Source: Bacillus sp. ISL-55 (lineage in GTDB: Bacteria > Bacillota > Bacilli > Bacillales > Cytobacillaceae). Taken from it: a stretch of 64,000 nt of DNA. Positions within the stretch are counted from its first letter, which is position 1, and each line of letters opens with the position of its first letter. Under the pieces are notes generated by a model, which did not search any database, was not told the origin of the DNA, and saw only the letters and a list, made by a program, of their open reading frames with translations. Of this stretch, positions 85 to 14,978 are shown one piece after another. Location of the stretch: assembly GCF_018613155.1 (NCBI RefSeq), contig NZ_JAGGQU010000037.1:1-64000 (forward strand), in the 5' to 3' direction. The position numbers and the translations under genes are program-made.

Positions 85-146
85 GGAGCGGTTTTTCAAA
101 ACCGGAGGACCGTTCCCGCTTTTTTAAAATGGAAGGTGTGGAGAAC
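85..146 (+). promoter_or_regulatory. Duplicated hairpin leader, copy 1
   Basis: A 7-bp stem (CGGTTTT/AAAACCG, 89-104) is followed by a GGACCGTTCC-like block, a T-run and the ribosome site GGAAGGTGTGGAG. The same order of elements recurs at 947-1002 before the second lipoprotein gene. There the stem differs in length but still pairs. Function is unknown; RNA-level control or an attenuator is possible. Confidence 0.45.
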
Positions 147-884
147 TTGAAGAAGTGGATCATGTTGACTGTGAAAATATTAATGGTAGTTATGGTTGGA
201 GCAGGATGCATGAGTTCCGAAAGCAAGGTTATCAAGCACTTGGAAAATAAATATGATGAGAAATTTAAAGTAGAAGATGTTGATAAGGCTAGTGCATTAT
301 TCCCTTCTCTCTCTGGGAAAGACAAAATTTTCGCCTATCCAGAAGGAAAACCTGAGCAATTATTTGTAGCGGGTGAAAGCCAGAACAAAGAAGGGGAAAT
401 ATACGATACTTATATACTGGCCAAATGGGGAGAAGAGCTGGAAGAGACTATGGAGCAGGAAGTGAAAAAACAAATTCCTGATGTTAGCGACTTTAAGATT
501 TATCTACGTATAGCAGATAGTAAATACGATGAGAGTATGATGGATACTTCCATATATGATTACCTAAAGAATATTAATAAGGAAGTTGACGTTGTACTGG
601 TTGCTGCTATAAAAACCTCTGGCCAACCAGACATTAAGCCTTACAATGAAGGACTATATAATTTATACCAAAAGTTAAAAAGCCTAAACACAGATTTTTA
701 TACACTCTCAGTTGGGTTTGTAGAAGATTCCTTGAATAGTGACGAGTATATAAGGACCTCCAATGGGAACAATACTCCATGGTCTAATTTAAAGGGAGTA
801 TATGGAGCTGTAGTTGTAAACGATAGCTTTCAAATAAGTAAACCTGAGGGTATGAACGAATATTATGAGGTTTATGAGGAGTAA
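129..884 (+). CDS. Putative lipoprotein, paralogue A (candidate T7SS immunity lipoprotein)
   Basis: This encodes a 251-residue exported lipoprotein of a family I cannot name with confidence. A Lys-rich start and hydrophobic stretch lead to the lipobox-like MVGAGC, so the mature protein would begin at that Cys, tethered outside the membrane. The ribosome site GGAAGGTGTGGAG sits just before TTG 147, so TTG 147 (245 residues) is a better start than ATG 129. The next gene is a clear paralogue: both share the LKKWI start, the CMSSE sequence after the lipobox and a late YIRTS motif. Together they precede a T7SS-type lipase. In staphylococci a lipoprotein neutralises the T7SS lipase TslA, so an immunity role is a reasonable inference but is not shown by the sequence. 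Confidence 0.75.
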   Translation: MEGVENLKKWIMLTVKILMVVMVGAGCMSSESKVIKHLENKYDEKFKVEDVDKASALFPSLSGKDKIFAYPEGKPEQLFVAGESQNKEGEIYDTYILAKWGEELEETMEQEVKKQIPDVSDFKIYLRIADSKYDESMMDTSIYDYLKNINKEVDVVLVAAIKTSGQPDIKPYNEGLYNLYQKLKSLNTDFYTLSVGFVEDSLNSDEYIRTSNGNNTPWSNLKGVYGAVVVNDSFQISKPEGMNEYYEVYEE

Positions 885-946: not shown

Positions 947-1002
947 GGGGCGGTTTTTAAACCGGACGGTCCCTGTTTTTTAAAACGGAAGGTGTGGAGA
1001 AC
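947..1002 (+). promoter_or_regulatory. Duplicated hairpin leader, copy 2
   Basis: The stem CGGTTT/AAACCG (951-964), a GGACGGTCC palindrome, a T-run and the same ribosome site repeat the leader at 85-146. The pairing is kept although the bases around the loop differ. This suggests the gene and its leader were duplicated as a unit. Confidence 0.45.
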
Positions 1003-1782
1003 TTGAAGAAGTGGATCAAGCTGACTGCGGCAATTTTATTCGTAATTATGGGAGGTGCGGGGTGTATGAGTTCGGAGAATAAGGTTTTAGCTAAATTAGA
1101 AGAAAAGTATAACCAAAAGTTCTCAATAGAAGGAGTCAAAGAAGGCAGCAAGGCTTTTGCTCAAATGTATGGTAAGGATAAGCTGACTGTGCATCCGGAA
1201 GGGAATCCTGAGGTAGTTTTTCTGGCGCAAGAGGACAAAGATGACAAAGAATTTGTGAATGATAATTATGTCCTAGCTAAGTGGGCTGAAGAATTAAAAG
1301 CAAAGCTTGCGGATCAAATTGAGAAAGAACTCCCTCCCGGAACTCCGTACAAAGTTTTATTGAGAATTGCGCCAGATAAATATGATAAGTCCATGGTTAA
1401 TATGTCATTTGATGAGTATTTAGAAAAAGGCTATCAAGATTTTTCTGTGGTTTTAAAGGCAGGTATTAAGACGGAAGGCAAACCAGAGGTTAGTCAATTT
1501 AACGAAAATATTTATAACTTGTACAACTTGATGAAATCTGTAGGAACAGAAAGATATACAGTTTCAGTAGGGTTCGTTGACAATTCAGAAGATATCTCAG
1601 ATTACATAAGGACATCACTTGTAAATAATATTGCCTGGTCAAATTTAAAAGCTAAAGTTTATGGTGAAGTTAATGTAGATTACCGTTTTGATCCAGAAAA
1701 CAATTCGGGAATGGTTGATGAGTCGCTTGTACTAACCGGACCCGAAAGAATAGCTGTTAATTACCAGCCATTCGGGGAGTGA
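994..1782 (+). CDS. Putative lipoprotein, paralogue B (candidate T7SS immunity lipoprotein)
   Basis: This 262-residue protein is a tandem paralogue of the preceding gene. It has the LKKWIKL start, a hydrophobic segment and the lipobox-like MGGAGC, and then aligns along its length with paralogue A. Conserved stretches include YxLAKWxEEL, YxxLLRIAxxKYD and YIRTS. GTG 994 and TTG 1003 are both possible starts; TTG is better spaced from GGAAGGTGTGGAG. It ends 4 bases before the lipase gene, so the two are very probably co-transcribed. The divergence between the copies would fit two immunity variants, or one immunity and one accessory protein. No enzyme motif is visible. Confidence 0.75.
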   Translation: MENLKKWIKLTAAILFVIMGGAGCMSSENKVLAKLEEKYNQKFSIEGVKEGSKAFAQMYGKDKLTVHPEGNPEVVFLAQEDKDDKEFVNDNYVLAKWAEELKAKLADQIEKELPPGTPYKVLLRIAPDKYDKSMVNMSFDEYLEKGYQDFSVVLKAGIKTEGKPEVSQFNENIYNLYNLMKSVGTERYTVSVGFVDNSEDISDYIRTSLVNNIAWSNLKAKVYGEVNVDYRFDPENNSGMVDESLVLTGPERIAVNYQPFGE

Positions 1783-1786
1783 TTAG

Positions 1787-3199
1787 ATGTCCTTGGATAA
1801 ATTGACAGACGAAGAAAAAAGTATTCTTTTGCAGTTATCATATTTGGATTTGCCGCCCGAACTTACTGTTAGTGATAAATCAACTCTTACCATTGATGAG
1901 GTGTTAATACAAATATCTGATAACGAAATAGAAGTCGATTCTGATCGATTTGACAATATAAAAAACTTCCTAAGAGATAATCCAAATACCAGCCTTAAAG
2001 ATATTAAATTAACAGGCTACCAAAATCACAACCCAAACGAGGCGAACAATACAGAGGGTGAATCAGACGCCGGTTTCGTTGGCTATGCAATCAAAGATGG
2101 TGAAGGTAATGGTGCAGTGTTATTCCGCGGCAGTGAGAATCCCTTTAATTGGGGCCATCTTAAAACAGATTGGGGAGGGAATTTAGCCGCTGGTATGAGT
2201 ATTGAAACCAAGCAGCATGACGAAGCTCTCGCCTTTTATGAAGCAAATATGAAGAACCTGGATGGAGACATCACGATTTATGGTCATTCTAAAGGCGGAA
2301 ACCTTGGTTCATGGGTTTTTGTGAATAATTATCAAGATTCAAATGTCAATGCCTATATCTTAAATGGGGCTCCACTTTGGTGGTTTGATTTAGATGAGGG
2401 TCAGAAAAATGCGATGAAAGGTGATCGTTTTACCTTCATCACTTTTAATGGAGATATCGTATCCCATCTGGGATTTGCCCCGTATGTTGATAAGATTGTG
2501 TCGATCAATAAACAGCATGGAGATTATTGGGATCCGTTTTATCCGCATTATGAGACCAGCGGAGTATACAACAAGGATGGCAGTTTCGCATCAGCTCGAA
2601 GTGCGGATACATGGGGAGTAGCCGATATGGCTTTGGATGTGTTCCATTCACTTGGCAGTATGCGGGATTACTTACCAAGGCAGATTGCCAAGGCATGGAT
2701 AGTAATCGGCGCAGCGACGTTGGACATTATTTATAACACCTGGCAGGGAATAGTCGAACAGGCCAATTATGTAAAAGAGCAGGCATTAATGTATATTTCT
2801 AAAATACAACAAACCGGGCGGGAATTAGTTGGCAAGGTGAGTAAATTCTTTGAAACTGTTGCCATGCGGGCAAAAAGCTTTATAACAAAAGTCATTGATT
2901 ATATGAACGGCAACAACTTCCCAATCGAACCCTATATAAAAGTAGACATCCCAAGGCTGTTCTACTATGCAAACCGTCTGCGATCGGTGCAAAGGCGGAT
3001 CGCCCAGCTCAATGACATGATTGATGATTTATACTGGGAAGCGGGTGTCATGGGACTGGATAATGTCCTCGCAGCGGATATCGCCTCATCCTTCGATATC
3101 CGGATTCCAGAAAGCATCAATTACCTGAACCGGACGGCGGAACTTTTACAGCAGAATGAGAGGTATCTCGCCGGAAAAGCCGGTTCAATCAGGGGGTAA
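1787..3199 (+). CDS. Lipase-like T7SS effector with N-terminal catalytic domain and C-terminal helical domain
   Basis: This is a 470-residue alpha/beta-hydrolase of the Mbeg1-like/DUF2974 kind. The nucleophile elbow is GHSKGG with Ser168. Asp223 (FNGDIVS) and His254 (YPHYETSG) are good candidates for the rest of the triad. There is no signal peptide. Residues 290-470 are predominantly helical and end in an amphipathic region (about 375-465), which resembles the targeting domain of LXG toxins but at the opposite end. This matches the reversed layout of Staphylococcus aureus TslA, a T7SS-secreted phospholipase with small helical partners and a lipoprotein antagonist. Here lipoproteins lie upstream and small helical/WXG100 proteins downstream. 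Secretion by T7SS and phospholipase activity are inferred. Confidence 0.75.
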   Translation: MSLDKLTDEEKSILLQLSYLDLPPELTVSDKSTLTIDEVLIQISDNEIEVDSDRFDNIKNFLRDNPNTSLKDIKLTGYQNHNPNEANNTEGESDAGFVGYAIKDGEGNGAVLFRGSENPFNWGHLKTDWGGNLAAGMSIETKQHDEALAFYEANMKNLDGDITIYGHSKGGNLGSWVFVNNYQDSNVNAYILNGAPLWWFDLDEGQKNAMKGDRFTFITFNGDIVSHLGFAPYVDKIVSINKQHGDYWDPFYPHYETSGVYNKDGSFASARSADTWGVADMALDVFHSLGSMRDYLPRQIAKAWIVIGAATLDIIYNTWQGIVEQANYVKEQALMYISKIQQTGRELVGKVSKFFETVAMRAKSFITKVIDYMNGNNFPIEPYIKVDIPRLFYYANRLRSVQRRIAQLNDMIDDLYWEAGVMGLDNVLAADIASSFDIRIPESINYLNRTAELLQQNERYLAGKAGSIRG

Positions 3200-3394: not shown

Positions 3395-3429
3395 CTCTAT
3401 TGGACATCACTTGAAAGGAGGTGGAAAGA

Positions 3430-3732
3430 ATGGCAAGATCGATCACTGTTGAACCAGCAAAGCTTGAAACGACTGCTAACAAGATTGACCAGCAGGCAGC
3501 TGATTACGAAAGAAATTACAAAGCTCTTTTCAACGAAGTCGAAGCGATGGCGGCTGCTTGGCAGGGAGCTGATAACCAGGCTTACACTGCACAAATCAAA
3601 GGCTTCATGGACGACTTCAACAAAATGACTCAGTTGATGAGACAGTACTCAGAGTTCCTGAAGATGAGCGCGAAGACCTACCGCGACACTCAGAGCGAAG
3701 TCATTAACCAGGCTAAGAGATTGAGCAACTAA
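3430..3732 (+). CDS. WXG100 family protein 1
   Basis: This is a 100-residue WXG100 (EsxA-like) protein. Two helices flank a central WQG at AAAWQGADNQAY, and the C terminus carries the YxxxxxE-type region typical of secreted WXG proteins. A strong ribosome site (AAGGAGG) is spaced 8 bases from ATG 3430, which decides the start over GTG 3421. Proteins of this family form four-helix dimers and are exported by the EssC/YukB ATPase. The machinery is not in this window, so the genome must supply it elsewhere. The gene lies between the lipase partner gene and a second WXG100 gene. Confidence 0.9.
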   Translation: MARSITVEPAKLETTANKIDQQAADYERNYKALFNEVEAMAAAWQGADNQAYTAQIKGFMDDFNKMTQLMRQYSEFLKMSAKTYRDTQSEVINQAKRLSN

Positions 3733-3762: not shown

Positions 3763-4065
3763 TTGGCAGGAGATGGAATCAAAATCTCGCTCGGCGAGGT
3801 TAGCAAAACGGCGGGCCAAATCCGCACCCTGAATCAGCAATTATCTACTAGATTAGAAGAAATCAAGAAAGACATGAACGCACTAGCGTCATCATGGAAC
3901 TCCGACGCATCCAACACAATCCGCGGCAACTTCAACTCACTTGCACCACGATTTGAAGAATATCGCCAGGTCGTCGACAGCTACGCCAAATTCTTGGATA
4001 ACACTGTCACAAACTACAACACTGCAGAAACAGCGATCAACAACAACGCCAGCTCTTTTAAGTAA
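3763..4065 (+). CDS. WXG100-like protein 2 (variant WNS motif)
   Basis: This is a 100-residue helical hairpin protein of the WXG100 superfamily. The turn reads SSWNSDAS, with Ser in place of the canonical Gly, as in some partners of heterodimeric WXG pairs. It starts at TTG with GGAGG 9 bases upstream. It lies 30 bases after WXG100 protein 1, and the similar lengths and adjacency suggest the two form a heterodimer. An N-terminal GIKISLGEVSKTAG segment resembles other Firmicute Esx-like proteins. The exact partner is an inference. Confidence 0.85.
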   Translation: MAGDGIKISLGEVSKTAGQIRTLNQQLSTRLEEIKKDMNALASSWNSDASNTIRGNFNSLAPRFEEYRQVVDSYAKFLDNTVTNYNTAETAINNNASSFK

Positions 4066-4068
4066 GCA

Positions 4069-4122
4069 TTTTTTACAGAGGGGAAGGGGCAAGCAGCTGG
4101 TGCAGTTTGCCCTTCTGTAAAA
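4069..4122 (+). terminator. Long imperfect hairpin after the WXG100 genes
   Basis: TTTTACAGA pairs with TCTGTAAAA, and inside it AAGGGGCAA pairs imperfectly with TTTGCCCTT. The loop holds CAGCTG. No long U-run follows, so it is an unusual terminator or an RNA-stability hairpin at the end of the toxin and partner genes. Confidence 0.5.
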
Positions 4123-4151
4123 TAAACCCCTGTGACATGGCGGCAAGCATT

Positions 4152-4270
4152 CAACGGGGATTATCTGTGAGTCAACGGGGATTATCAGTTAATCAACAGG
4201 GATTATCCATCATCCAACGGGGATTATCCGCAGTATAACGGGGATTAAAAGCGGTGCAACGGGTAATATT
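4152..4270. repeat. Phased array A: six copies of CAACGGGGATTATC at exactly 21 bp
   Basis: Copies start at 4152, 4173, 4194, 4215, 4236 and 4257, so every step is 21 bases. The first four keep the 14-base word almost perfectly; the fifth and sixth decay. The 7-base spacers differ completely. Twenty-one bases is two DNA turns, so all words face the same side of the helix. It lies between the WXG100 genes and the FHA gene. Confidence 0.85.
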
Positions 4271-4296
4271 AGCAGTTGTCCTGGGAGATGCGAGTC

Positions 4297-4391
4297 CAAC
4301 CGTCGAAAAAAGGTGACCAACCGTTGATAAAATCACCTCGACCGTCGATTAATGTACTTTAACCGTCGATACTAGACCTTCAACCGTTGAT
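4297..4391. repeat. Phased array B: five copies of CAACCGTCGAT at exactly 21 bp
   Basis: Copies start at 4297, 4318, 4339, 4360 and 4381, again with exact 21-base steps. Consensus is YAACCGTYGATA with variable spacers. It follows array A, but the 40-base offset between the arrays breaks the phase. The word is different apart from a shared CAAC. Nothing else is visible in the 420-base gap before the FHA gene. Confidence 0.85.
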
Positions 4392-4488
4392 ATAAGGGTC
4401 CCAGTCAAAAACAAATCGCATTTTTGCTGAAAAAACTAGGGCGGACAGGCCAAAACCATACATAAATTCAAATTGGAGTCGAAAAGCA

Positions 4489-5805
4489 ATGATCAAACAT
4501 GCGGATTTTAAATTAGAAAGCTATGGAATTTCGAAATTCCTTTATTTTCATGCTGGAAGCAAGGCAGACATCGATGGCAGCCAGGTTGAGCTTTTGAGAA
4601 CGAGCCGAATTCCGGGAATTCTGCCATGTGCTGCGATTCTTGAAGGGGATAACTGCTTTCTTCGCTATGACATGATTTCCGATAACACGCTTGAGATGCT
4701 GAATTCCACGCCAGCAACGAAAGAACAGCTATACAATAGCTTCCTCAACATTGCCGAAACACTGGTGGATGCCCAAGCTAGCGGCATGGATATCGAGAAC
4801 TTCGTGTTCAGCCAGCGTGACATCTTTATTGATAATTTTTCAAACAGATTAGTTTTTATCTACCTTCCTGTAAAAAATAATGTTTTTGAAAAGGTATCAC
4901 TTAAAGACTTTTTGCGTGAATTGCTCTTATCGGCTCCTTACGATGAAACCGATGACGCCGCATTTTTTATCAAACTCCATAACTATCTGGTCGAGACAGA
5001 CGATGTCTCTCCGGAACATCTGCTGGAAAAAATGAATGAATTGGTCGGAGATGAAACACTCGTACGGCAGCCTTATAAGATGCCTGAAAAGCCGAAGCAG
5101 GAAGCAGCAACATCGGCACCTGTCCAAACAGATGAAGAAAGCATAACGGAAGAACCAGAGCTTGAAACACCATCCATCAACCCGAACTTCTACAGCCCGG
5201 GCAGCGAGGTCCACACCATGAAAACAAGCGTCGACAATGGCGTGCTGACTTCTGAGTATACAAGCCAGAAAAAGGACGTAAAAACAGGCCGCAAGCTTGA
5301 AATCGAGGAAGAAGTTAACTACAAGCGGATTACCAGGGCGGAGCTTGGAGAGAACAATACGCTGTTAAGAGATGCGGCGAAACTAGGTGGCGGCACATCA
5401 ATCAACATCCAGCCAGCCTTGTCCAGCAGTGAGCCAGAGCACGAGGGCACCACGGTACTTGGCGTAATGGCAAATGAGGACGAGGGAACGACGACTCTTG
5501 GCCATTCCAGCCGCAGGCCGTTTTTGCTGGCAGTCTCCAAGAATGAAAAAATCACGATTGCCAAGGACTTTTTTAAAATTGGCCGGGATCCGATGAGAGC
5601 GGACTTTGCCTCTGAAAACAAAGTAATCGGCCGGGTGCATGCTCACGTGATCATATCGAACGGCGAATATTTCCTGGAGGACAATCACTCAACCAACGGC
5701 AGCTACGTAAACGGCGTGAAGTTGTCACCAAAGGAAAAAGTCAAAATCAAACACGAAGATAAAATCAAGCTCGCGAATGAGGAATTCGTCTTCAGGCTTT
5801 ATTAA
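4489..5805 (+). CDS. FHA-domain protein with N-terminal DUF6382-like domain
   Basis: This 438-residue cytosolic protein probably binds phosphothreonine. Residues 1-190 resemble the DUF6382 domain that often precedes FHA in Firmicutes. A linker rich in Glu, Pro and Lys follows. The FHA domain spans about 345-438 with the expected loops GRDPMRAD (365), GRVHAH (381) and NHSTNGSYVNG (399). Just before it are two motifs, EGTTVLG (Thr321/322) and EGTTTLG (Thr334-336). These match the Thr motifs in the membrane protein at 8797 and resemble the ETT switch of mycobacterial GarA. Phosphorylation by the kinase encoded two genes downstream, with intramolecular FHA binding, is a good model. The gene is 15 bases upstream of the PP2C gene. 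Confidence 0.85.
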   Translation: MIKHADFKLESYGISKFLYFHAGSKADIDGSQVELLRTSRIPGILPCAAILEGDNCFLRYDMISDNTLEMLNSTPATKEQLYNSFLNIAETLVDAQASGMDIENFVFSQRDIFIDNFSNRLVFIYLPVKNNVFEKVSLKDFLRELLLSAPYDETDDAAFFIKLHNYLVETDDVSPEHLLEKMNELVGDETLVRQPYKMPEKPKQEAATSAPVQTDEESITEEPELETPSINPNFYSPGSEVHTMKTSVDNGVLTSEYTSQKKDVKTGRKLEIEEEVNYKRITRAELGENNTLLRDAAKLGGGTSINIQPALSSSEPEHEGTTVLGVMANEDEGTTTLGHSSRRPFLLAVSKNEKITIAKDFFKIGRDPMRADFASENKVIGRVHAHVIISNGEYFLEDNHSTNGSYVNGVKLSPKEKVKIKHEDKIKLANEEFVFRLY

Positions 5806-5820
5806 AGGGGGGAACAAAAG

Positions 5821-6609
5821 ATGACATTTCAAGTGGCCTACTATACGGACATTGGAATCAAGAAGAAAACCAATCAAGACGGCCTTCTATTAAAAACAGC
5901 CAGGACCCCAGAGGGTGAAATCGGCTTGTTCGTCATCTGCGACGGAATGGGCGGCCTTTCCCACGGTGAGCTGGCGAGTGCGACGGTAATTAGAGGGATG
6001 TCACACTGGTTTGACAACGACCTTCCGGAAATGCTGGAGGCAGGAATCGCGGAAAGTGATATTCCTGGCCGGCTTGAGGAGCGCATTCGCGAGCTGAACA
6101 AAAAGATCATTGATTATGGCGAGACTTCGAATATCAAACTCGGGACAACGATCACAGCCTTGCTCATCCTCCACAAGCAATATTTCATTTTACAAATCGG
6201 GGACAGCAGGGCGTACAGCATCAGTGACCAGCTTGTAAAATTGACCGAAGACCAGACGCTCGTAGAACGCGAGCTGCAGCGAGGCAATATTACCGCAGAA
6301 CAGGCAAGGATTGATTCGCGTCGGAATGTACTGCTCCAATGCGTTGGCGCCACAAAGGACATCAACGTCGTCATCACATCCGGCGAAGTAGAAAGCGGAA
6401 CAATGTTTATGCTTTGCACAGACGGATTTTACCATGAAATCAGCGATGAAGAAATGCTCACAAACCTTAATCCGCAACATTTCACCAGTGAAAAAACCAT
6501 GAAAGAAAAGCTCGTTCAACTCGTCGAGCTCGCAAAAAAACGCCAGGAAACAGATAATATCTCGATTCTGCTGGCAAGGGACATGGGGACGGTTCTCGCG
6601 TCCCACTAA
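5821..6609 (+). CDS. PP2C-type Ser/Thr protein phosphatase
   Basis: This is a 262-residue PPM/PP2C phosphatase of the PrpC/Stp1 type. It shows metal-binding motifs near the start (TNQDG and CDGMGG), a central TTI segment, GDSRAY, LTEDQTL and the final TDNISIL. It should remove phosphate from Thr/Ser residues, with two Mn/Mg ions at the active site, and so oppose the adjacent kinase. A very strong ribosome site (GGGGGG) precedes ATG. The last codons coincide with a GGGAC/GTCCC repeat (6586-6604), so the C-terminal residues (DMGTVLASH) appear to come from that element. It lies in a tight FHA-phosphatase-kinase order typical of phospho-signalling operons. Confidence 0.92.
   Translation: MTFQVAYYTDIGIKKKTNQDGLLLKTARTPEGEIGLFVICDGMGGLSHGELASATVIRGMSHWFDNDLPEMLEAGIAESDIPGRLEERIRELNKKIIDYGETSNIKLGTTITALLILHKQYFILQIGDSRAYSISDQLVKLTEDQTLVERELQRGNITAEQARIDSRRNVLLQCVGATKDINVVITSGEVESGTMFMLCTDGFYHEISDEEMLTNLNPQHFTSEKTMKEKLVQLVELAKKRQETDNISILLARDMGTVLASH
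6586..6604. repeat. Short intergenic repeat, copy 2 (inside the PP2C 3' end)
   Basis: GGGAC and GTCCC flank GGTTCTCGC. The copy at 25053-25071 has the same 19-base layout. Here the element supplies the last codons of the phosphatase gene, so it has been absorbed into coding sequence. Confidence 0.5.
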
Positions 6610-6623
6610 ATGGGGTTTATTGG

Positions 6624-8609
6624 ATGAAGGAACCAACCATCCCCGCGTTTCTGGGAGGAATGACTTTGATACAAATTGGCACAATCATTGATGACAGATA
6701 TGAAATATTGAAGGAAATCGGGCGCGGCGGGATGAGCGTCGTCTATCTGGCGATGGACAACCGGCTGAACAAATCGCTCGTCGTCAAGGATATCCGCAAG
6801 CGCAGCAACAGCAATAATGAGCTCTTGATCAACAGCCTGGTTGTCGAGGCGAACATGCTGAAGAAGCTCGACCACGGTTCGCTGCCGAAGATCTATGACA
6901 TCATCGAGTCTGAGGGCGACATCTACGTGGTGATGGACTATATCGAAGGCGAATCGCTCAAGGAAAGGCTTAAGCGCGACGGCAAAATCCCGGCAAAAGA
7001 AGTGATTGAGTGGGCGAAACAGCTGAGCGATGTCCTCGGTTATCTGCACACCAGGAAGCCATACCCGATCATTTACCGTGACATGAAGCCGGACAATGTC
7101 ATGTTGACACCGGAAGGCAAAATCAAGCTGATTGACTTCGGGATCGCGCGTGAATTCAAGACCGAGAATCTCTCTGACACTACGAATCTCGGAACGAAAG
7201 GGTACGCAGCTCCTGAACAGATTTCCGGCAGGCAGACCGACGCGAAAACCGATATTTATAGTTTGGGAATTACACTCTATCATCTTGTCACCGGAAAAAG
7301 CCTGAGCGAGCCGCCTTTTGAGATCAGGCCAATCCGAGAATGGGACCCGTCGCTTCCGGAAGGCCTCGAGCATATCATCAAAAAATGCACACAGGCCGAG
7401 CCGGCGAACCGCTACCAGAACTGCGAGGAGCTGAGCTATGACCTCGAGCACATCAACAGGCTGACGAAGGGCTATAAGAACATGCTGATCAAGAAGCTGG
7501 CGATGTTCCTCGTTCCGGCTGTGCTTTTCCTGGCGTTCTCAACAACCTCTGCCCTCGGCTACAAAGGAATGAAAAATGAGCAATTCCAGGATTATATGAA
7601 TCTCGTAAACCAGGCAAGCATTGCGCTGATGGACGGTGAACAAACCGAAGCCATTAAGCTCCTCGAGAGCGCGATCCGCGTCGACAAAGAACGTCCGGAA
7701 GCATACATCAATCTGCTTGATTTATATATCAATAGAAACCAGACAGACGAAGGACTCGCCAAGATGGAATCATACATACAGGATAAATACGGGGCAGTCC
7801 ACGAGAATAATGAAGTTCTTTTTAAAATGGGGATGACCTATTTCGATGTGCAACGGGATTATAACAATGCGCTGAAATACTTTCAGCAGATTGATGAAAA
7901 AGAACTGCCGGATGCGAAATATTACAAGTCGCTGGCAACGACAATGAGCAGCCTGAACGTCGATTATACGAAATTCGCCGGTGATCTCCAGGAGTTCCAC
8001 CAGTACAATGACGGCCTGGCAAATGACGGCAAAAAGATCGATAACTATAACTCTCTAGCAAATATCTATATTTCATATAAGAGCCAGATTCCTGAATCGA
8101 ACACCCAGGCAATCGATATTGTCCAGAAGGCGAAGGAAATCCTCGCCAAGCTTGAAAACGAGCAGCTCCAATTCAAATACGAGATGGAATTCGAACAGAA
8201 ACTGGCCCAGGCCTACTACAGCCGCGGCGTAAATTCAGAGGATAAGGCAAGTGCCCGCGATGACTTTGAAAAAGCAATCGAGCACTATAACAACCTTCTG
8301 GACCTGAACGTGGCCGATCAGGAAGATGTCTATGTCAAAATTGGCGTCATCTATCAGGAAATGGGCGAATTCTCTCGCGCAGTTGAGCACTTCCAGAACA
8401 CGACGCTAAAAAAATTCCCTGATAGCATCAATGCCTACGTGAAGCTTGGTAACCTCCTCCTCGATATCGAGCAAGGAAAAGAAGAAGGACAGCGAAACTA
8501 CGCTAAAGCTAAAGAAATTTATGAAAAAGCAGCCACCCTGACAGGCGCGAAAGGCGATGAAGCATTCAAAAAACTCACCAGGCGCATGGAGAACTTGAAT
8601 ATTTTATAG
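6624..8609 (+). CDS. Membrane Ser/Thr protein kinase with extracytoplasmic TPR region
   Basis: This is a 661-residue Hanks-type kinase. Motifs are GRGGMSVVY (G-loop, about 33-41), Lys55, YRDMKPDN (Asp153; Tyr replaces the usual His), DFG (171) and APE (196). The activation loop contains DTTNLG (Thr186/187), which resembles the Thr motifs in neighbouring proteins. A membrane segment at 291-312 follows, and the remaining 340 residues carry TPR-like repeats predicted to lie outside. Most Firmicute kinases of this layout have PASTA domains there, so a TPR sensor is unusual. ATG 6624 is listed, but GGGAGG at 6653-6658 is ideally placed for TTG 6666, which would shorten the protein by 14 residues. 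Confidence 0.93.
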   Translation: MKEPTIPAFLGGMTLIQIGTIIDDRYEILKEIGRGGMSVVYLAMDNRLNKSLVVKDIRKRSNSNNELLINSLVVEANMLKKLDHGSLPKIYDIIESEGDIYVVMDYIEGESLKERLKRDGKIPAKEVIEWAKQLSDVLGYLHTRKPYPIIYRDMKPDNVMLTPEGKIKLIDFGIAREFKTENLSDTTNLGTKGYAAPEQISGRQTDAKTDIYSLGITLYHLVTGKSLSEPPFEIRPIREWDPSLPEGLEHIIKKCTQAEPANRYQNCEELSYDLEHINRLTKGYKNMLIKKLAMFLVPAVLFLAFSTTSALGYKGMKNEQFQDYMNLVNQASIALMDGEQTEAIKLLESAIRVDKERPEAYINLLDLYINRNQTDEGLAKMESYIQDKYGAVHENNEVLFKMGMTYFDVQRDYNNALKYFQQIDEKELPDAKYYKSLATTMSSLNVDYTKFAGDLQEFHQYNDGLANDGKKIDNYNSLANIYISYKSQIPESNTQAIDIVQKAKEILAKLENEQLQFKYEMEFEQKLAQAYYSRGVNSEDKASARDDFEKAIEHYNNLLDLNVADQEDVYVKIGVIYQEMGEFSRAVEHFQNTTLKKFPDSINAYVKLGNLLLDIEQGKEEGQRNYAKAKEIYEKAATLTGAKGDEAFKKLTRRMENLNIL

Positions 8610-8780
8610 AAGGAAGCAAAGGGCTTTCCCTTCGCTCCAAAGCAGGAGCAAAGAGAATATCCTAAGCTTCTGAATGCAGAACCATAGAGATTATCCTATG
8701 CCCCTGAAAGCAGAAGCAAAGAGTAAATCCCTATGCTCCTAAAAGCAGAAGCACAAGGTACGTCCCCATGCTCCCAAGGA
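8610..8780. repeat. Five tandem hairpin-forming units of about 34 bp
   Basis: Units begin near 8610, 8642, 8676, 8710 and 8745. Each has an AGNAGCAWAGNG left arm and a CYTATGCTCCT-like right arm around a short loop, so each can form an imperfect hairpin. The first unit (GGAAGCAAAGGG, CTTT, CCCTTCGCTCC) directly follows the kinase stop codon. Single hairpins with the same GAAGCAAAGG arm act as terminators at 42731 and 44556. Confidence 0.65.
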
Positions 8781-8796
8781 AGGCAGTTGAAGAAGA

Positions 8797-9429
8797 TTGG
8801 CATACCAGATCATGTTTTACGGCGGTTTGGCTGGCGCGGTGATCGCGCTGGTGATAGCCATCCTCGCATATGTAAAAATCAATATTGCCCAGGTCATTAC
8901 AGATCTGACGGGCTGGAATTTTCCGGGTGCGGGGAGAAAAGCCCGGAAGAAAACGACCAGCATCAAGGCCGAAACAAGCACAAAGCCGACGACAAAGGAA
9001 ATCCATGTCCGCAAGAATGTTGAAAAAGAAGTGGCGGCTGGTGAGTATGTTGAACCCACCGAGAAAATGGCGGGCGGTCAGCTTGAGCAAACAGCTCTTT
9101 TGAGCCAGGAGAGCTTCCGAAAAACAGACTTGCTTAAACAAGAAGGCTTGGAGCCGACAGCTTTGTTAAAAGAAACTTCAGTGCGAAAGCCAGTTGCAGC
9201 AGCAGTTTCATCCAACCAGGGCGTTTCATATGAGTCACCAACTGAGACAACCATCCTGTCCGATTGGAATGAAACCACCGTCCTGACGGCAGACCATGAT
9301 GAAACGACTTTACTTGGTGAAACAACACTATTGGATGACTTCGAAGAAACGACCTTGCTGTCAGAAGAAGAACCACGTTTTAAAAAGCAGGTGGATATAG
9401 TCATGGTCCATTCAGAAACAATCATTTAA
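8797..9429 (+). CDS. Single-pass membrane protein with repeated E-T-T-x-L motifs in a cytosolic tail
   Basis: This 210-residue protein has a membrane segment at about 8-30, followed by a basic patch (GRKARKK) that should face the cytosol. The remaining tail is predicted disordered. It carries eight copies of a motif of the form [EQKP]-T-x-[ILV]-L at residues 98, 109, 120, 150, 159, 169, 175 and 184; the last five are ETT[ILV]L. Two like motifs precede the FHA domain of the protein at 4489, and the kinase activation loop has DTTNLG. A multi-site kinase substrate that docks FHA domains is a strong hypothesis. It starts at TTG; ATG 8812 is an alternative. I do not recognise a named family. Confidence 0.8.
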   Translation: MAYQIMFYGGLAGAVIALVIAILAYVKINIAQVITDLTGWNFPGAGRKARKKTTSIKAETSTKPTTKEIHVRKNVEKEVAAGEYVEPTEKMAGGQLEQTALLSQESFRKTDLLKQEGLEPTALLKETSVRKPVAAAVSSNQGVSYESPTETTILSDWNETTVLTADHDETTLLGETTLLDDFEETTLLSEEEPRFKKQVDIVMVHSETII

Positions 9430-9587: not shown

Positions 9588-12500
9588 ATGCTCGAACCGA
9601 GGAAAAAGAAGAAACGCCCAGGCAACAAATGGGCTGCCGTCATCCCGATCTTGTTAGTTTTGATTGTGTCTGTGGTAATTTTTAATGGCAAGGCGCTTTC
9701 TACATTAACGAATGTTGACAAAGTAATTGAATTCCAAGGCCAGGAATGGAACATGGCGGAGTCGTTTAACAAGGATTGGCAAACCAACAACAATCCTGTT
9801 ACATTCACTGTTGATTTGCAGGATGATTTCAGTAAAGCGAATCTCCAGGGACAAGATGTTCAGGCACCGTTTAACATCACGGCTGACCAAAACGGGAATC
9901 CAATTTCAGTTACAGACATTGTCCCTGTAGGCGGCACAGAATTTGCTGGGAAGTATATCGTGAAAATCCCAGTCAGTACTGATGGAGAAATCGATATCAA
10001 AATAGAATTTATAAATGATGAGTCATGGAAACTCGATTCTGAGACTAAGACATTCACCATCACACGAGACACAACCGCTCCTATTGTAAAATTGTCTGGA
10101 GCAGATAATGGCACTCTGTCAAGCGAGGGTGTCAAAATCGATGTTGAAGTGATAGAGGAGCATTTTGCTGCCGAAAAAGTAGAAGTTACTGTTTCAAAAA
10201 ACGGCAACCCATACAATGTGGGTGACTGGGGGTCGGCAAAGAGCAGATCTTATTCTTTCAGTGAAGAAGGCGAGTATCTTTTCACAGTAAAAGCGTCAGA
10301 TAAGGTTGGAAACGAAAGCAGCCAGGAACAGCTGAATTTTGCAATCCGAAAAAAGGCTCCTGAGCTGACGGTGTTGGCAGGCGAGAATCCCCTTTCTAAA
10401 GGAGAAGTTTCAAAAACGGACAGTGTAAATCTTAAGATTTCAAGCAAAATCAAGATTGAAACTGCGTCGGTAACAGTTCTTAAAGATGGGGAGCAAATAG
10501 AAACAAAAACTTTCCCCGCTGGAGATTGGGAAACCAACCTCAACTATCCAACACCAGGTGAAGGAGAATACGAATTCCAGGTGAAGGTTAGGGAAAAGCA
10601 TGCTAGGGGCGAGGAACATTCACTTCCATCATTTTCTTTCACTGCCGACAAAACGGCTCCAAAGCTTGCAATCCTGGATGTGGAAAATGGCGGTTTATAC
10701 GAAACAGACAAAGATGTAAAAGTAACAGTTGATGAAGCACATACGGGCAATGCTCACTTTGAAATCAAGAAAAAGGACATCAATGGAGAGGAAACATCGA
10801 AAAGTGTTGAAGTGAAAGACGGAAAGGCCAGCTATAAAACCAATGGCGAGGGTCAATATACCGTAACATTGAACGCAACGGACGCTGCTGGCAATAAGGC
10901 TGAAGAGAAAAGTGTTACGTTCAAAATCGACAAAGATGGTCCAATTCTCTCTATCTCAGAAGATGTGGATGGAAAGTATTTTAAGACAGACAAGGAGCTG
11001 ACATTCTCAGTAAAGGATATCAGTCTTGTAAAAGCGAATCTTAATGTGAAAAAGGATGGAGAGCCATATACGATCGGCACTTTCATCGAAAAATTTTTTA
11101 CTTCCACGGTTACGCACAATTTTACGGAGGAAGGCACCTATGAAGTTGATCTAAACTCAAAAGATGGAAAAGAACGAGAGAAATCGCATCCTCCGGTGAC
11201 TTTCACAATTGATAAAAATGATCCAGTAATCACAGCATCAGCTGTTGAAAAAGTAAAAGATGAAAAGAAATACTACGAACTGACTGTAGATATAGCTGAC
11301 GATTATATCGACTGGAACAATACGAGCATGAAAGTTTTAAGGAATGGCAAGACACTTTCCGAAATCACAGGAAAAGAAGTGGCTAAAACACACGTGATTG
11401 AAGAAGATGGCGAATATGCCTTCGAAATCACAGCGGCAGACAAAGCTGGCCGTGTCACGACCAAAAATGATTTGAAATTCACCATCGATAATACGGATCC
11501 CAAACTGTCCATCAATGGTGTTGAGAATGGAGGGTATTATCAAAAACTCGAAAATCTCGAACTAGCGATCGAGGATTTAACTTTCGTAATCGGAGAAACG
11601 AAACTGGAAGTACTGAAGGATGGGGAACCATACGATATCGGAAAGGATGAGTGGACTGTCCTGACGAAAGGCGGGCTTAAGAGAGCGGTCAAGAAGCTGA
11701 GCTTCGACAAGGATGGCGATTACGAGATCAGCCTGATAACGACAGATTTATTTGGCAATAAAAATACTCTTGAACCAGTCAAGTTCACAATCGACACAAT
11801 CCCGCCTGAGTTAAAAATTGAAAGTGTATCGGATGAGGATGAGTCAGGAAAGGATCTTAATGTAAAGGTCTCTGTTACTGATAAAAACATCGATCTTGAT
11901 GAAACATTTCTCAATGTTACAAGGAATGGCGAGGAGTATCTGGCCGAAAAAGGACAGAAGGTTTCTGGCGTCCATCCATTCACAGAAGATGGGATATATG
12001 TCATCAGTCTCGAATCAACAGATAAAGCAGGAAACAAAAAGAGCCACCAACAACTGACATTCACTGTCGACAAGTCAAAGCCAACACTTGATATTACGGG
12101 TTTTGAAGTTGGGGAGCATTATCAAAAGCTTGAAGGTGTCGAATTATCCGTAGAAGATTTGACCCTCGATTTAAATGAAACGAAGATCGAGGTATTAAAA
12201 GACGGCAAGCCGTACGAAATTGAGAATGGCGAATGGAATGAAGCTTCAAAGGGTGTTCTCAAAAGGGCAACCCGCAAGCTAAACTTTGATGAAGATGGGG
12301 ATTATGAAATCAAACTGACCTCAATGGACAGGGTTAAAAATCTACATTCATTTGGTCCTGTCAAATTCACAATCGATAATACCGAACCGGTCATCGAGCT
12401 AAGTGGAATTGACGAGGAAGATTTCGTCCAGAAGGGTAAGTCGGTCAAGGTGAAAGTAATCGAACATAATTTCAACGATAACAAAGTAACCATCGAAGCA

Positions 12501-14978
12501 ACAAAGGACGGAAAGCCATATGATTTCGGTAAATGGGAAAACAAGGATGAAGTCACTGAATTGAGCCACACCTTTAACGAGGACGGTGACTATCAAATTA
12601 CGGTAAATGCAATTGACCGCGCAAAAAAACAAGCGAAGTCCCAAACGCTGAGTTTCACTGTCGACAATATCAAGCCAATCATCAAAGTCACTGGAGCAAA
12701 CAATAACACTTATTATAACAGTGACAAAGAAATTAAGATCGCTGTAGAAGAGCATAACTTCGCAAATAACAAGGTAGATATCAAGGTGACAAGGAAAGTT
12801 GAAGTTGATGGCAATCCAGTTAACTTCCCGATCAGCGAATGGAAAAATGTAAAGGAGCTTTCTGAAATAAGCCATGAGTTTGACCGTGATGGTGAGTATC
12901 AGATTACCATAGAAGCGAAGGATGCTGCCGGAAATGCTGCCGATACGCAAACGCTCCTGTTCACCCTTGACTATATCGATCCGGAACTGAGCATCACAGG
13001 TGTTAGTGATGATGAACATTACCGTACAGACAAACCAGTCAGCATGAAGATTGCCGATCGCAACATCGACCTGACCCAGACAGAACTTAAGGTCGTGCGC
13101 AATGGCCAGCCTTACAAAATTGGTAATCCGGAACTGAAAGGCAAAACAGCTGCTGATAAGGTTTTCAATTTTTCGCAGGAAGGCAGCTATGTGATCGACC
13201 TGAATACAACGGACAAAGCTGGCAACAGCAAGAAGCATGACCGGGTTACTTTCATCATCGACAAAACCAACCCAGTCGTGAAAATTGATGGAGTAGAGAA
13301 CAACTCATTCAATCCAGAAAACAAAAACGTGACCATATCAATCGATGAGTTAAATTATGAAACAAACGATGTAAGCATCAGCGCAACAAAAGATGGTGCT
13401 GCATTCTCGATCGGCAGCTGGAAGAACACCGGGAAGCTATCTAAATTAGAATACAATTTTAACAGGGATGGCCTTTACACGATTCAGGCAACTGCAAAGG
13501 ATAAAGCCGGAAACGGTCCAATCGCTGAGAAAAGGACATTTACAATCGACAAAACCAAGCCGGAAATCGAGATTACAGGTGTCGAAAATAATGCCTATTA
13601 CAATGTTGATAAGCCAGTTAACGTTTCAATCAGGGACGTAAACCTCGATATCAACAAAATCACGGTGACCAGGAATGGAGCACGATACAATGCCGGCGGT
13701 TTCTCTGTGAATCGAAACACCGCTTCACTCCGCCATAACTTCAGCGGCGAAGGTGATTACAACATCTTGGTGGAAGCAACCGATAAAGCGGGCAACAGCT
13801 TCAGCAAGACGATGACATTCACGATCGACAAGACGAAGCCGGTCATCACCCCGAAATTCAAAGGGCAGAATCGTGTCATTAAAGACGGAGAATATATCAA
13901 TGAAGTATTCACTCCTGAGTTTGCCCTCACTGAAGCAGAGGATATGATCGTTTCTGCAACTCTGAACAATGGCACAAACCTTGGTAAAAACATTCCTGTT
14001 GCCGCAAGGGAAATGAAATATATTTACAAAGTTCTCGCACGCGACAAAGCAGGCAATGAATCAACACTGGAAATCAGCTTCACGTTGGATACAACAAAGC
14101 CAGCACTGAATATTACCGGCGTACTTGACGGCTTTTTCAATAAAGACATCACGCCGAAAGTGACGTATGCAGACATCTACCTGGATAGCAGCAAGACATC
14201 CGTTACCTTGAACGGCAAGCCATTCGAAAACGGAACAAAGCTTGAATACGAACAGGATTATATTTTAAAAGCGGTAATAACAGACTTGGCGAAGAACGTT
14301 TCATCAAGAACAATCGTCTTCACCATTGATAAAACAAAGCCAGTCATCAAGTTCAAAGAGCCAATTTCCAATAAATATTTCAATGCCGATCTCCTGCCGC
14401 AGCTGTTGATCGATGATATGAGTTCTTACGACATCATCGCGATGATGCTTGACGGAAAGCCATATGAAGCAGGGGATCCAATTAAAGAAGAAGGAAAGCA
14501 CGTCATGTTCTTCGAAGTAAAGGATAAGGCAGGCAATATCCAGCAGTTAAGCGTCGAATTCATCATCGACAAAACCGCGCCAAAGGTAGTTTATGAAGGT
14601 GTGAAAAATAAAGAAAAATACTATGACCCAGTCGACATTTCCATCCGCCTGGATAATCCGAATGATAAAATAAAATCGGTCATGATCAACGGTGAAATGT
14701 TTGATGGCGATGTAGTAGAAGAGGATGGCTACAGGGTCATCAAAACCAAGTTGGCAGAAATTAAGCCATACGAGATCAAAGTAACGGCAAGTGATGAAGC
14801 AGGCAATGAAAAAACAACCGTCATTTCATTCGAAATCGTCGAAAAAGGAGCCTTAGTGAAGTTTTATGAAAATAAACCTTTGCTCGGCGGGACGGTTGCT
14901 GGTTTTGTTGGACTGCTTGGAGCAGCAGCAACAGTGCTGGTTAGAAGACGAAGGGTTAGAGTAGAAGAAGAAGAATAG
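9588..14978 (+). CDS. Giant surface protein: about 17 Ig-like repeats anchored by two membrane segments
   Basis: This 1796-residue protein has a cytosolic KKKKR start, a membrane segment at about 16-34, roughly 17 Ig-like domains of 85-100 residues, and a second membrane segment near 1765-1785 followed by the tail RRRRVRVEEEE. Each repeat opens with a variant of FTIDKTKPxIxITGV and usually holds a VTRNG/VLKDG strand and an AxDKAGN turn. There is no LPXTG motif. Both ends should therefore sit in the membrane, with the Ig chain looping out through the wall. Repeats 5-6 and 7-8 look like a duplicated pair. It follows the phospho-tail protein by 158 bases and ends at a strong terminator. A ligand-binding, adhesive or wall-sensing role is possible. 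Confidence 0.88.
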   Translation: MLEPRKKKKRPGNKWAAVIPILLVLIVSVVIFNGKALSTLTNVDKVIEFQGQEWNMAESFNKDWQTNNNPVTFTVDLQDDFSKANLQGQDVQAPFNITADQNGNPISVTDIVPVGGTEFAGKYIVKIPVSTDGEIDIKIEFINDESWKLDSETKTFTITRDTTAPIVKLSGADNGTLSSEGVKIDVEVIEEHFAAEKVEVTVSKNGNPYNVGDWGSAKSRSYSFSEEGEYLFTVKASDKVGNESSQEQLNFAIRKKAPELTVLAGENPLSKGEVSKTDSVNLKISSKIKIETASVTVLKDGEQIETKTFPAGDWETNLNYPTPGEGEYEFQVKVREKHARGEEHSLPSFSFTADKTAPKLAILDVENGGLYETDKDVKVTVDEAHTGNAHFEIKKKDINGEETSKSVEVKDGKASYKTNGEGQYTVTLNATDAAGNKAEEKSVTFKIDKDGPILSISEDVDGKYFKTDKELTFSVKDISLVKANLNVKKDGEPYTIGTFIEKFFTSTVTHNFTEEGTYEVDLNSKDGKEREKSHPPVTFTIDKNDPVITASAVEKVKDEKKYYELTVDIADDYIDWNNTSMKVLRNGKTLSEITGKEVAKTHVIEEDGEYAFEITAADKAGRVTTKNDLKFTIDNTDPKLSINGVENGGYYQKLENLELAIEDLTFVIGETKLEVLKDGEPYDIGKDEWTVLTKGGLKRAVKKLSFDKDGDYEISLITTDLFGNKNTLEPVKFTIDTIPPELKIESVSDEDESGKDLNVKVSVTDKNIDLDETFLNVTRNGEEYLAEKGQKVSGVHPFTEDGIYVISLESTDKAGNKKSHQQLTFTVDKSKPTLDITGFEVGEHYQKLEGVELSVEDLTLDLNETKIEVLKDGKPYEIENGEWNEASKGVLKRATRKLNFDEDGDYEIKLTSMDRVKNLHSFGPVKFTIDNTEPVIELSGIDEEDFVQKGKSVKVKVIEHNFNDNKVTIEATKDGKPYDFGKWENKDEVTELSHTFNEDGDYQITVNAIDRAKKQAKSQTLSFTVDNIKPIIKVTGANNNTYYNSDKEIKIAVEEHNFANNKVDIKVTRKVEVDGNPVNFPISEWKNVKELSEISHEFDRDGEYQITIEAKDAAGNAADTQTLLFTLDYIDPELSITGVSDDEHYRTDKPVSMKIADRNIDLTQTELKVVRNGQPYKIGNPELKGKTAADKVFNFSQEGSYVIDLNTTDKAGNSKKHDRVTFIIDKTNPVVKIDGVENNSFNPENKNVTISIDELNYETNDVSISATKDGAAFSIGSWKNTGKLSKLEYNFNRDGLYTIQATAKDKAGNGPIAEKRTFTIDKTKPEIEITGVENNAYYNVDKPVNVSIRDVNLDINKITVTRNGARYNAGGFSVNRNTASLRHNFSGEGDYNILVEATDKAGNSFSKTMTFTIDKTKPVITPKFKGQNRVIKDGEYINEVFTPEFALTEAEDMIVSATLNNGTNLGKNIPVAAREMKYIYKVLARDKAGNESTLEISFTLDTTKPALNITGVLDGFFNKDITPKVTYADIYLDSSKTSVTLNGKPFENGTKLEYEQDYILKAVITDLAKNVSSRTIVFTIDKTKPVIKFKEPISNKYFNADLLPQLLIDDMSSYDIIAMMLDGKPYEAGDPIKEEGKHVMFFEVKDKAGNIQQLSVEFIIDKTAPKVVYEGVKNKEKYYDPVDISIRLDNPNDKIKSVMINGEMFDGDVVEEDGYRVIKTKLAEIKPYEIKVTASDEAGNEKTTVISFEIVEKGALVKFYENKPLLGGTVAGFVGLLGAAATVLVRRRRVRVEEEE

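What the first reader, a model, noticed from the sequence alone, without database searches (positions are those of the whole stretch)
4489..9429. A kinase, phosphatase and FHA module that shares one Thr motif across three proteins
The tail protein (8797) has eight [EQKP]-T-x-[ILV]-L copies, five of them ETT[ILV]L. The FHA protein has EGTTVLG and EGTTTLG before its FHA domain, and the kinase activation loop has DTTNLG. This is the pattern expected if the kinase phosphorylates all three and FHA then docks on the tail, in itself a graded eight-site switch. With WXG100 genes upstream and a giant surface protein downstream, it may connect surface sensing to T7SS. I know of no described system with this composition.
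Basis: partly seen in the sequence, partly recalled or inferred. Interest (0 to 1): 0.82.

Follow-up and report, generated by a model that had tools for sequence, protein, structure and literature searches.

The report
Threonine-array tail of a secretion system
A Bacillus relative carries a recently described kind of protein-export machine, and one of its small membrane proteins bears a conserved row of identical threonine motifs that look like phosphorylation-controlled docking sites for the export motor, which could explain how the machine is switched on.

Summary
In detail: the tail protein has 8 [EQKP]-T-x-[ILV]-L copies, 5 of them ETT[ILV]L (20,000 shuffles: mean 0.13, maximum 3); the FHA protein has two TTxL motifs; the kinase loop reads DTTNLG. 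But the system is described: it is a type VII secretion system of the T7SSe/T7SSj group (Garrett, Higginson & Palmer 2024). Its ATPase and YukD lie on another contig; 13 of 13 congeners with the tail have all genes side by side. What seems new is the array. Among 93 distinct proteins at the tail's position in Bacilli and Clostridia (five clearly unrelated), T-x-[ILV]-[LM] occurs 570 times against 42 by shuffling; the serine version is depleted (11 against 25); 250 control proteins show no excess. This fits pT-x-x-L FHA ligands. The likelier reader is the ATPase's FHA2, with canonical pThr residues in 14 of 15 ATPases; the FHA protein lacks at least one of the two key residues in all 37 distinct copies from loci with the ATPase in view. 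Its DUF6382 domain is modelled as a kinase fold without catalytic motifs: a pseudokinase. Phosphorylation and binding are inferred, not shown. New variant of a known kind.

The parts
129..884 (+). lipoprotein-like paralogue A (copy number varies in relatives)
994..1782 (+). lipoprotein-like paralogue B
1787..3199 (+). Mbeg1-like alpha/beta-hydrolase; candidate T7SS substrate (role inferred)
   Evidence: Pfam Mbeg1-like 8e-5; partial SA1320-family match far below its cut-off
3421..3732 (+). WXG100 protein (TsxA-like)
   Evidence: Pfam 8.9e-14
3763..4065 (+). second WXG100 protein (TsxA2-like)
   Evidence: Pfam 1.5e-12; NF035934 over its cut-off
4489..5805 (+). J: DUF6382 (pseudokinase fold) - disordered linker - FHA
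   Evidence: Pfam; AF2 models and PDB fold searches
5446..5499 (+). two TTxL motifs in the J linker (GTTVL 5446-5460, GTTTL 5485-5499)
   Evidence: T and L columns 44/45 and 41/45 in a 45-row alignment
5521..5802 (+). FHA domain of J; pocket R366, G381 (S in about half of relatives), H384, N403
5821..6609 (+). F: PP2C/PPM phosphatase
   Evidence: Pfam PP2C_2 3.7e-11; NF033484 6.7e-53 but below its cut-off
6624..8609 (+). D: Ser/Thr kinase with C-terminal TPRs; one TM helix between them inferred from relatives, TPRs then outside
   Evidence: Pfam kinase 2.5e-52 and TPRs; TM at about residue 270-285 in six relatives
7176..7193 (+). DTTNLG in the kinase activation loop
8797..9429 (+). K: single-TM protein with threonine-motif tail, predicted cytoplasmic
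9088..9360 (+). the eight T-x-[ILV]-L motifs of K
9588..14978 (+). I: giant Ig-domain envelope protein (TsxI-like)
   Evidence: Pfam Big_13 4.3e-67 and other Ig-like families; next to K in 13 of 13 congeners

Best explanation
The finding is the regulatory half of a type VII secretion system of the T7SSe/T7SSj group. K is a phospho-docking scaffold. Kinase D senses an envelope signal (probably through its TPR domain outside) and phosphorylates threonines in the membrane-tethered cytoplasmic tail of K and in the linker of J. The resulting pT-x-x-L sites recruit and cluster the secretion ATPase through its canonical FHA2 domain, and J (pseudokinase plus a diverged FHA) joins the complex. Phosphatase F resets it. 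Shown here by sequence: gene content, linkage in relatives, conservation and threonine specificity of the motif, pocket residues, predicted folds. Inferred: phosphorylation, FHA2 binding, topology, sensing, direction of control.
For: Locus: ATPase and YukD on C44; order C-B-lipo-Mbeg1-WXG-WXG-J-F-D-K-I in 13 of 13 congeners fetched (in L048 several genes are split). Tail, DUF6382 and EssC occur together in 13 congeners and are all absent in the other 7 (Fisher 1.3e-5, without correction for kinship). Array: 93 distinct proteins, 570 motifs against 41.7 shuffled, Ser version 11 against 24.7, Val 27 against 25.0; thinned to 50 proteins at 50% identity, T 286 against 19.6, S 4 against 12.7; 250 other small single-TM proteins from the loci, T 72 against 62.3, S 63 against 71.0. 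Logo: acidic -2/-1, L at +3 in 97%. FHA ligands are given as pTxx[I/L/V] or pTxx[E/D], pT preferred over pS (PMC8786283, passages). J linkers: T 109 against 11.1, S 9 against 11.3; motif (looser pattern) in 61 of 65. Tail side of the TM more positive in 86 of 93. ATPase FHA2 pocket canonical in 14 of 15. Precedent: PpkA-dependent pThr14 of TssL is bound by Fha and activates T6SS (PMC3953482, passages).
Against: No phosphorylation or binding was measured. A diverged pocket may still bind, so J's FHA is not excluded. 18 of 124 kinase hits have no such neighbour by my rule (L130 is one whose K lies one ORF further), and 8 of 80 named loci gave no candidate with at least 2 motifs; in five of these (L153, L157, L164, L185, L186) the next gene found was a large protein, labelled Ig-type in three. 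Several Clostridial tails have only 1-2 motifs. WXG proteins show a mild T excess (21 against 9.7) and PP2C proteins an excess for both T (65 against 44.0) and S (58 against 36.1). The ATPase pockets come mostly from the window's clade. The ATPase's own ETTIKI stretch is only partly kept, even within the genus.
Confidence: 0.6

Rival explanations
1. One reading: the FHA protein J, not the ATPase, reads the phosphorylated tail, or J's own phosphorylated linker folds back on its FHA as in GarA/OdhI.
For: J's FHA model is close to solved OdhI, GarA, FhaA and EmbR FHA domains. The TTxL motifs sit just before it, as recalled for GarA/OdhI (recalled, not looked up). R, H and N of the pocket are kept in the window. 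Outside ATPase-bearing loci J often has both R and S: 11 of 14 in loci with two or more phosphatases, 8 of 15 in loci without the kinase in view, 5 of 43 with the kinase only.
Against: In loci with the ATPase in view 0 of 37 distinct J have both R and S (27 R/G, 7 K/S, 3 other), and 0 of 4 in loci with WXG only, whereas ATPase FHA2 keeps both in 14 of 15.
Confidence: 0.3
2. The array is a non-phosphorylated binding motif (short beta strand or hydrophobic patch) that happens to contain threonine.
For: Hydrophobic +2/+3 residues and fairly regular spacing could serve any peptide groove.
Against: Ser is depleted and Val or Ile at position 0 is not enriched (Val), though these would suit a beta strand; J linkers show the same Thr-only pattern. 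The kinase beside K is there by construction of the set and is no independent evidence.
Confidence: 0.12
3. Multisite phosphorylation acts as a bulk-charge or counting device (timer) or kinase decoy without any FHA partner.
For: Copy number varies widely, and copies are gained and lost within the genus.
Against: The near-fixed L at +3 (97%) and Thr-only use are FHA-ligand features not needed for bulk charge, though a kinase preference could also give the +3 residue.
Confidence: 0.1
4. Low-complexity repeat expansion without function.
For: Repeats expand and contract in tails.
Against: Motifs persist where K aligns at only 26-38% identity and spacers differ; codons of the copies differ; controls are flat.
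Confidence: 0.03

Closest known systems
T7SSj (Garrett, Higginson & Palmer 2024, PMC11217815)
   Same: A, B, C, D, F, I, J, K components; kinase with C-terminal TPRs; no TseH-like gene seen at the window locus; ATPase FHA with pThr residues
   Different: Reported from a small subset of Clostridium; here in Mesobacillus, Neobacillus and other Bacillaceae. Two WXG100 genes, whereas the paper counts T7SSj among systems with one. The threonine array and the kinase fold of DUF6382 are not in the text I read.
T7SSe (same paper)
   Same: Two WXG100 proteins, B, C, D, F, I, J, K
   Different: The paper sets TsjD's TPR domain apart from TseD; D here has TPRs. No TseH-like gene seen in the window.
T6SS threonine phosphorylation pathway (PpkA-PppA-Fha-TssL)
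   Same: Membrane kinase, phosphatase, FHA protein, and a pThr site on a membrane component
   Different: One mapped site (Thr14) on TssL in A. tumefaciens (PMC3953482, passages) against a multi-copy array here; unrelated machine.
T7SSb pseudokinase EssB/YukC with the EssC/YukB FHA region
   Same: Pseudokinase plus ATPase FHA region
   Different: There the interaction is judged phosphorylation-independent (PMC9600267, passages); here ATPase FHA2 keeps the pThr residues. No sequence match of DUF6382 to solved EssB.
GarA/OdhI
   Same: Thr motif just before an FHA domain, phosphorylated by a Ser/Thr kinase (recalled)
   Different: Metabolic regulators without array or pseudokinase (recalled).

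Membership tests
T7SSj | EssC-type ATPase with FHA bearing the pThr residues | tested here: met
   one TIGR03928 hit over cut-off, 1130.8 bits, on C44; FHA2 with R, SxxH, N
T7SSj | kinase D with C-terminal TPR | tested here: met
   Pfam TPRs; same clade as two Clostridium D with TPR
T7SSj | B, F, I, J, K present | tested here: met
   B on C44, adjacency inferred from congeners
T7SSj | a single WXG100 gene in the cluster | tested here: not met
   two WXG100 genes; the paper lists only T7SSe and T7SSg with pairs
T7SSj | no TseH | tested here: inconclusive
   none seen between D and mbl in the window; genome not searched for H
T7SSj | TsjC phylogenetic position near T7SSf/T7SSb | not tested
   no named T7SSj or T7SSb ATPase in my tree
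T7SSe | second WXG100 (TseA2) | tested here: met
T7SSe | TseH present | tested here: inconclusive
   not seen in the window; an 83-88 aa single-TM protein that may be H follows I in L070 and L076, two of five non-TPR loci printed
T7SSe | kinase without TPR C-terminus | tested here: not met
   D has TPRs
FHA pThr reader (J) | canonical R and S in the pocket | tested here: not met
   R366 but G381 in the window; 0 of 37 distinct J from loci with the ATPase in view
FHA pThr reader (ATPase FHA2) | canonical R, SxxH, N | tested here: met
   own genome; 14 of 15 distinct ATPases longer than 1430 aa
pseudokinase (DUF6382) | kinase fold without catalytic motifs | tested here: met
phosphorylated FHA-ligand array | phosphothreonine at the sites and FHA binding | not testable with these tools
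   sequence only

The most novel reading that the evidence does not exclude
K defines a general, valency-tunable phosphothreonine docking tail: a membrane-tethered array that, once phosphorylated, gathers FHA-bearing motor proteins. The F-D-K-I module is portable: it serves T7SS ATPases through their FHA2, and in Gracilibacillus and relatives it sits beside Tad pilus genes, in one genome with no T7SS ATPase found.
Probability: 0.4. Interest if true: 0.85.

Novelty: new variant of a known kind. Interest (0 to 1): 0.66.

Why it matters
The 2024 description of these T7SS subtypes suggests phosphorylation control but, in the text I read, names no target and no ligand for the ATPase's FHA domain. 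A conserved, threonine-only T-x-x-L array gives exact candidate sites, a candidate kinase, phosphatase and reader, and a peptide-level test. It would parallel the T6SS threonine pathway in Gram-positive bacteria, and the Tad-linked copies suggest that the switch can move between machines.

Tried and rejected
Literature searches: DUF6382 gave 1 paper; T7SSe with type VII secretion 2, one unrelated by title; TseK/TsjK/TseJ/TsjJ 63, of which the 20 shown held one relevant; phosphoproteome with C. acetobutylicum and FHA 0; broader searches were seen as listings. Of PMC11217815 I read sections 9, 14 and 16 whole, the abstract and passages; figures and supplements were not read, so the array or the fold could be shown there.

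Ordinary repeat expansion was disfavoured by codon differences, spacer change and controls. DUF6382 to solved EssB by sequence: only three weak unrelated hits; EssB is not among the rows shown for the fold, which excludes nothing. The kinase-loop match is not used as evidence. A raw DNA pattern count in the genome was uninformative. Searching the tail in its own genome at E up to 10 gave only itself.

Dropped or chosen rows: A2 holds the window's J and 44 of the 66 rows; A3 the window and 49 of them. The 65 are the distinct J with an FHA hit. The K set includes five proteins that by eye are not K (L083, L084, L085, L090, L107, with 0, 2, 2, 3 and 1 motifs); the thinned set left out L083 and L107 only. 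ATPase pockets were read only in proteins over 1430 aa. In one search five J pockets were not parsed by the pattern (none in ATPase-bearing loci). L109 was fetched but not used.
Full report
OBSERVATION. The genes are where the finding says. The tail protein K (8797-9429) has eight [EQKP]-T-x-[ILV]-L motifs, five of them ETT[ILV]L; 20,000 shuffles of its 170 C-terminal residues gave mean 0.13 and maximum 3, and there is no serine version. The FHA protein J carries GTTVL and GTTTL before its FHA domain, and the kinase loop reads DTTNLG. The last two fit T-x-x-L only.

IT IS A T7SS. The window starts at the first base of contig C31. The genome's only match over the cut-off of the EssC family (TIGR03928, 1130.8 bits) is on contig C44, followed by YukD, which ends 49 bases before that contig's end. 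In the 13 congeners fetched the order is ATPase, YukD, lipoproteins, Mbeg1-like, two WXG100, J, F, D, K, I (in L048 the ATPase, J and I are split). Tail and DUF6382 occur in the same 13 of 20 congeners; EssC occurs in those 13 and in none of the other 7 (two of the seven assemblies are only 87% and 66% complete). Garrett, Higginson and Palmer (PMC11217815; sections 9, 14 and 16 read whole, passages elsewhere) described T7SSe (two WXG100, B, C, D kinase, F phosphatase, H, I with Ig domains, J = DUF6382+FHA, K = one TM helix with a short unstructured cytoplasmic stretch) and T7SSj (similar, D with TPR, no H). They suggest phosphorylation control; the text I read names no target and no motif in K.

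WHICH SUBTYPE. A search with kinase domains found 379 relatives, of which the best 80 loci were kept. Their kinases and the window's (80 rows) form two clades: 39 rows including the window and two Clostridium (support 100), and 41 others. Four of four first-clade D proteins scanned had TPRs, and none of four from the other clade. The window locus has T7SSj features (TPR kinase, no H seen) and a T7SSe feature (two WXG100). I place it in the T7SSe/T7SSj group without filing it under either; loci of its kinase clade extend to many Bacillaceae.

THE ARRAY. In loci L039-L189 (not L054 and L109; some genomes occur twice), 106 of 124 D-type kinase hits have as next gene within 1 kb a small single-TM protein: 92 distinct, 93 with the window's own. 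The 18 without one are listed there. By eye five of the 93 are not K (L083, L084, L085, L090, L107; 8 motifs in all). In the 93 tails T-x-[ILV]-[LM] occurs 570 times against 41.7 in shuffles (maximum 63); the serine version 11 times against 24.7; Val at position 0 is at expectation (27 against 25.0). Thinned to 50 proteins at 50% identity: T 286 against 19.6, S 4 against 12.7, V 8 against 11.7. Position +3 is L in 97%, -1 is E in 50%, +1 mostly T, E or A. In 250 other small single-TM proteins of the loci the counts are 72 against 62.3. WXG proteins (21 against 9.7) and PP2C proteins (T 65 against 44.0, S 58 against 36.1) show milder excesses. Of the 80 named loci, 72 list at least one candidate with two or more motifs. 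Motif variants differ between relatives (ETTLL, PTALL, GTEVL, ETELL), and spacers look unrelated. The tail side of the TM is the more positive in 86 of 93, so the tail is predicted cytoplasmic.

J CARRIES THE SAME SITES. In a 45-row alignment (the window and 44 of 66 listed J), T321 and L324 are kept in 44, T334 and L337 in 41, although identity to the window falls to 19%. In all 65 distinct named J with an FHA hit, linker T motifs number 109 against 11.1 expected and Ser 9 against 11.3; 61 of 65 have a motif by a looser pattern.

WHO READS THEM. A review gives FHA ligands as pTxx[I/L/V] or pTxx[E/D], with pT strictly required (PMC8786283, passages). The phosphate-contacting Arg and Ser are named for A. 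tumefaciens Fha (PMC3953482, passages). ATPase FHA2 keeps Arg, SxxH and Asn in 14 of 15 distinct ATPases over 1430 aa, mostly of the window's clade. Distinct J by context: ATPase in view, 0 of 37 with both Arg and Ser (27 R/G, 7 K/S, 3 other); WXG only, 0 of 4; kinase only, 5 of 43; two or more phosphatases, 11 of 14; no kinase in view, 8 of 15. I therefore favour ATPase FHA2 as the main reader. That is inference.

TAD CONTEXT. G148, which holds the L141 locus, has no EssC hit at 1e-60, and its K still bears five motifs. The module is thus not tied to a T7SS ATPase.

VERDICT. Observation confirmed. The array, its threonine-only use, the pocket contrast and the pseudokinase fold make T7SSe/T7SSj regulation directly testable. 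No step of phosphorylation or binding has been shown.

Noticed in passing
L141, L133, L056 (J-F-F-D-K-I loci): The module sits beside prepilin-peptidase and TadE-like genes; G148 (the L141 genome) has no EssC hit although its K still has an array.
   Followed up: partly
C-terminal end of K, window 9388-9426, and relatives: The last residues of K are conserved separately from the array (a loose hydrophobic-H/N-T/S pattern fits 61 of 93); perhaps a strand that docks on a partner.
   Followed up: no
window 4110-4400 and 8620-8780: Intergenic stretches hold short degenerate direct repeats by eye (CAACGGGGATTATC-like and AACCGTCGAT-like before J; GCAGAAGCA-like before K).
   Followed up: no
L048 (G015): J, I and the ATPase each appear as two overlapping ORFs, probably assembly errors or decay.
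   Followed up: no
L110 and L170: L110 is titled Chryseobacterium sp. ISL-80 but is a Mesobacillus-type locus on a contig of the same length as congener G013's; L170, a 'Bacteroidales' MAG, carries a Bacillota-type locus. Both look mislabelled or contaminated.
   Followed up: partly
L070 and L076, after I: An 83-88 aa single-TM protein after the Ig gene, perhaps TseH; seen in two of five non-TPR loci printed and not in the window.
   Followed up: partly
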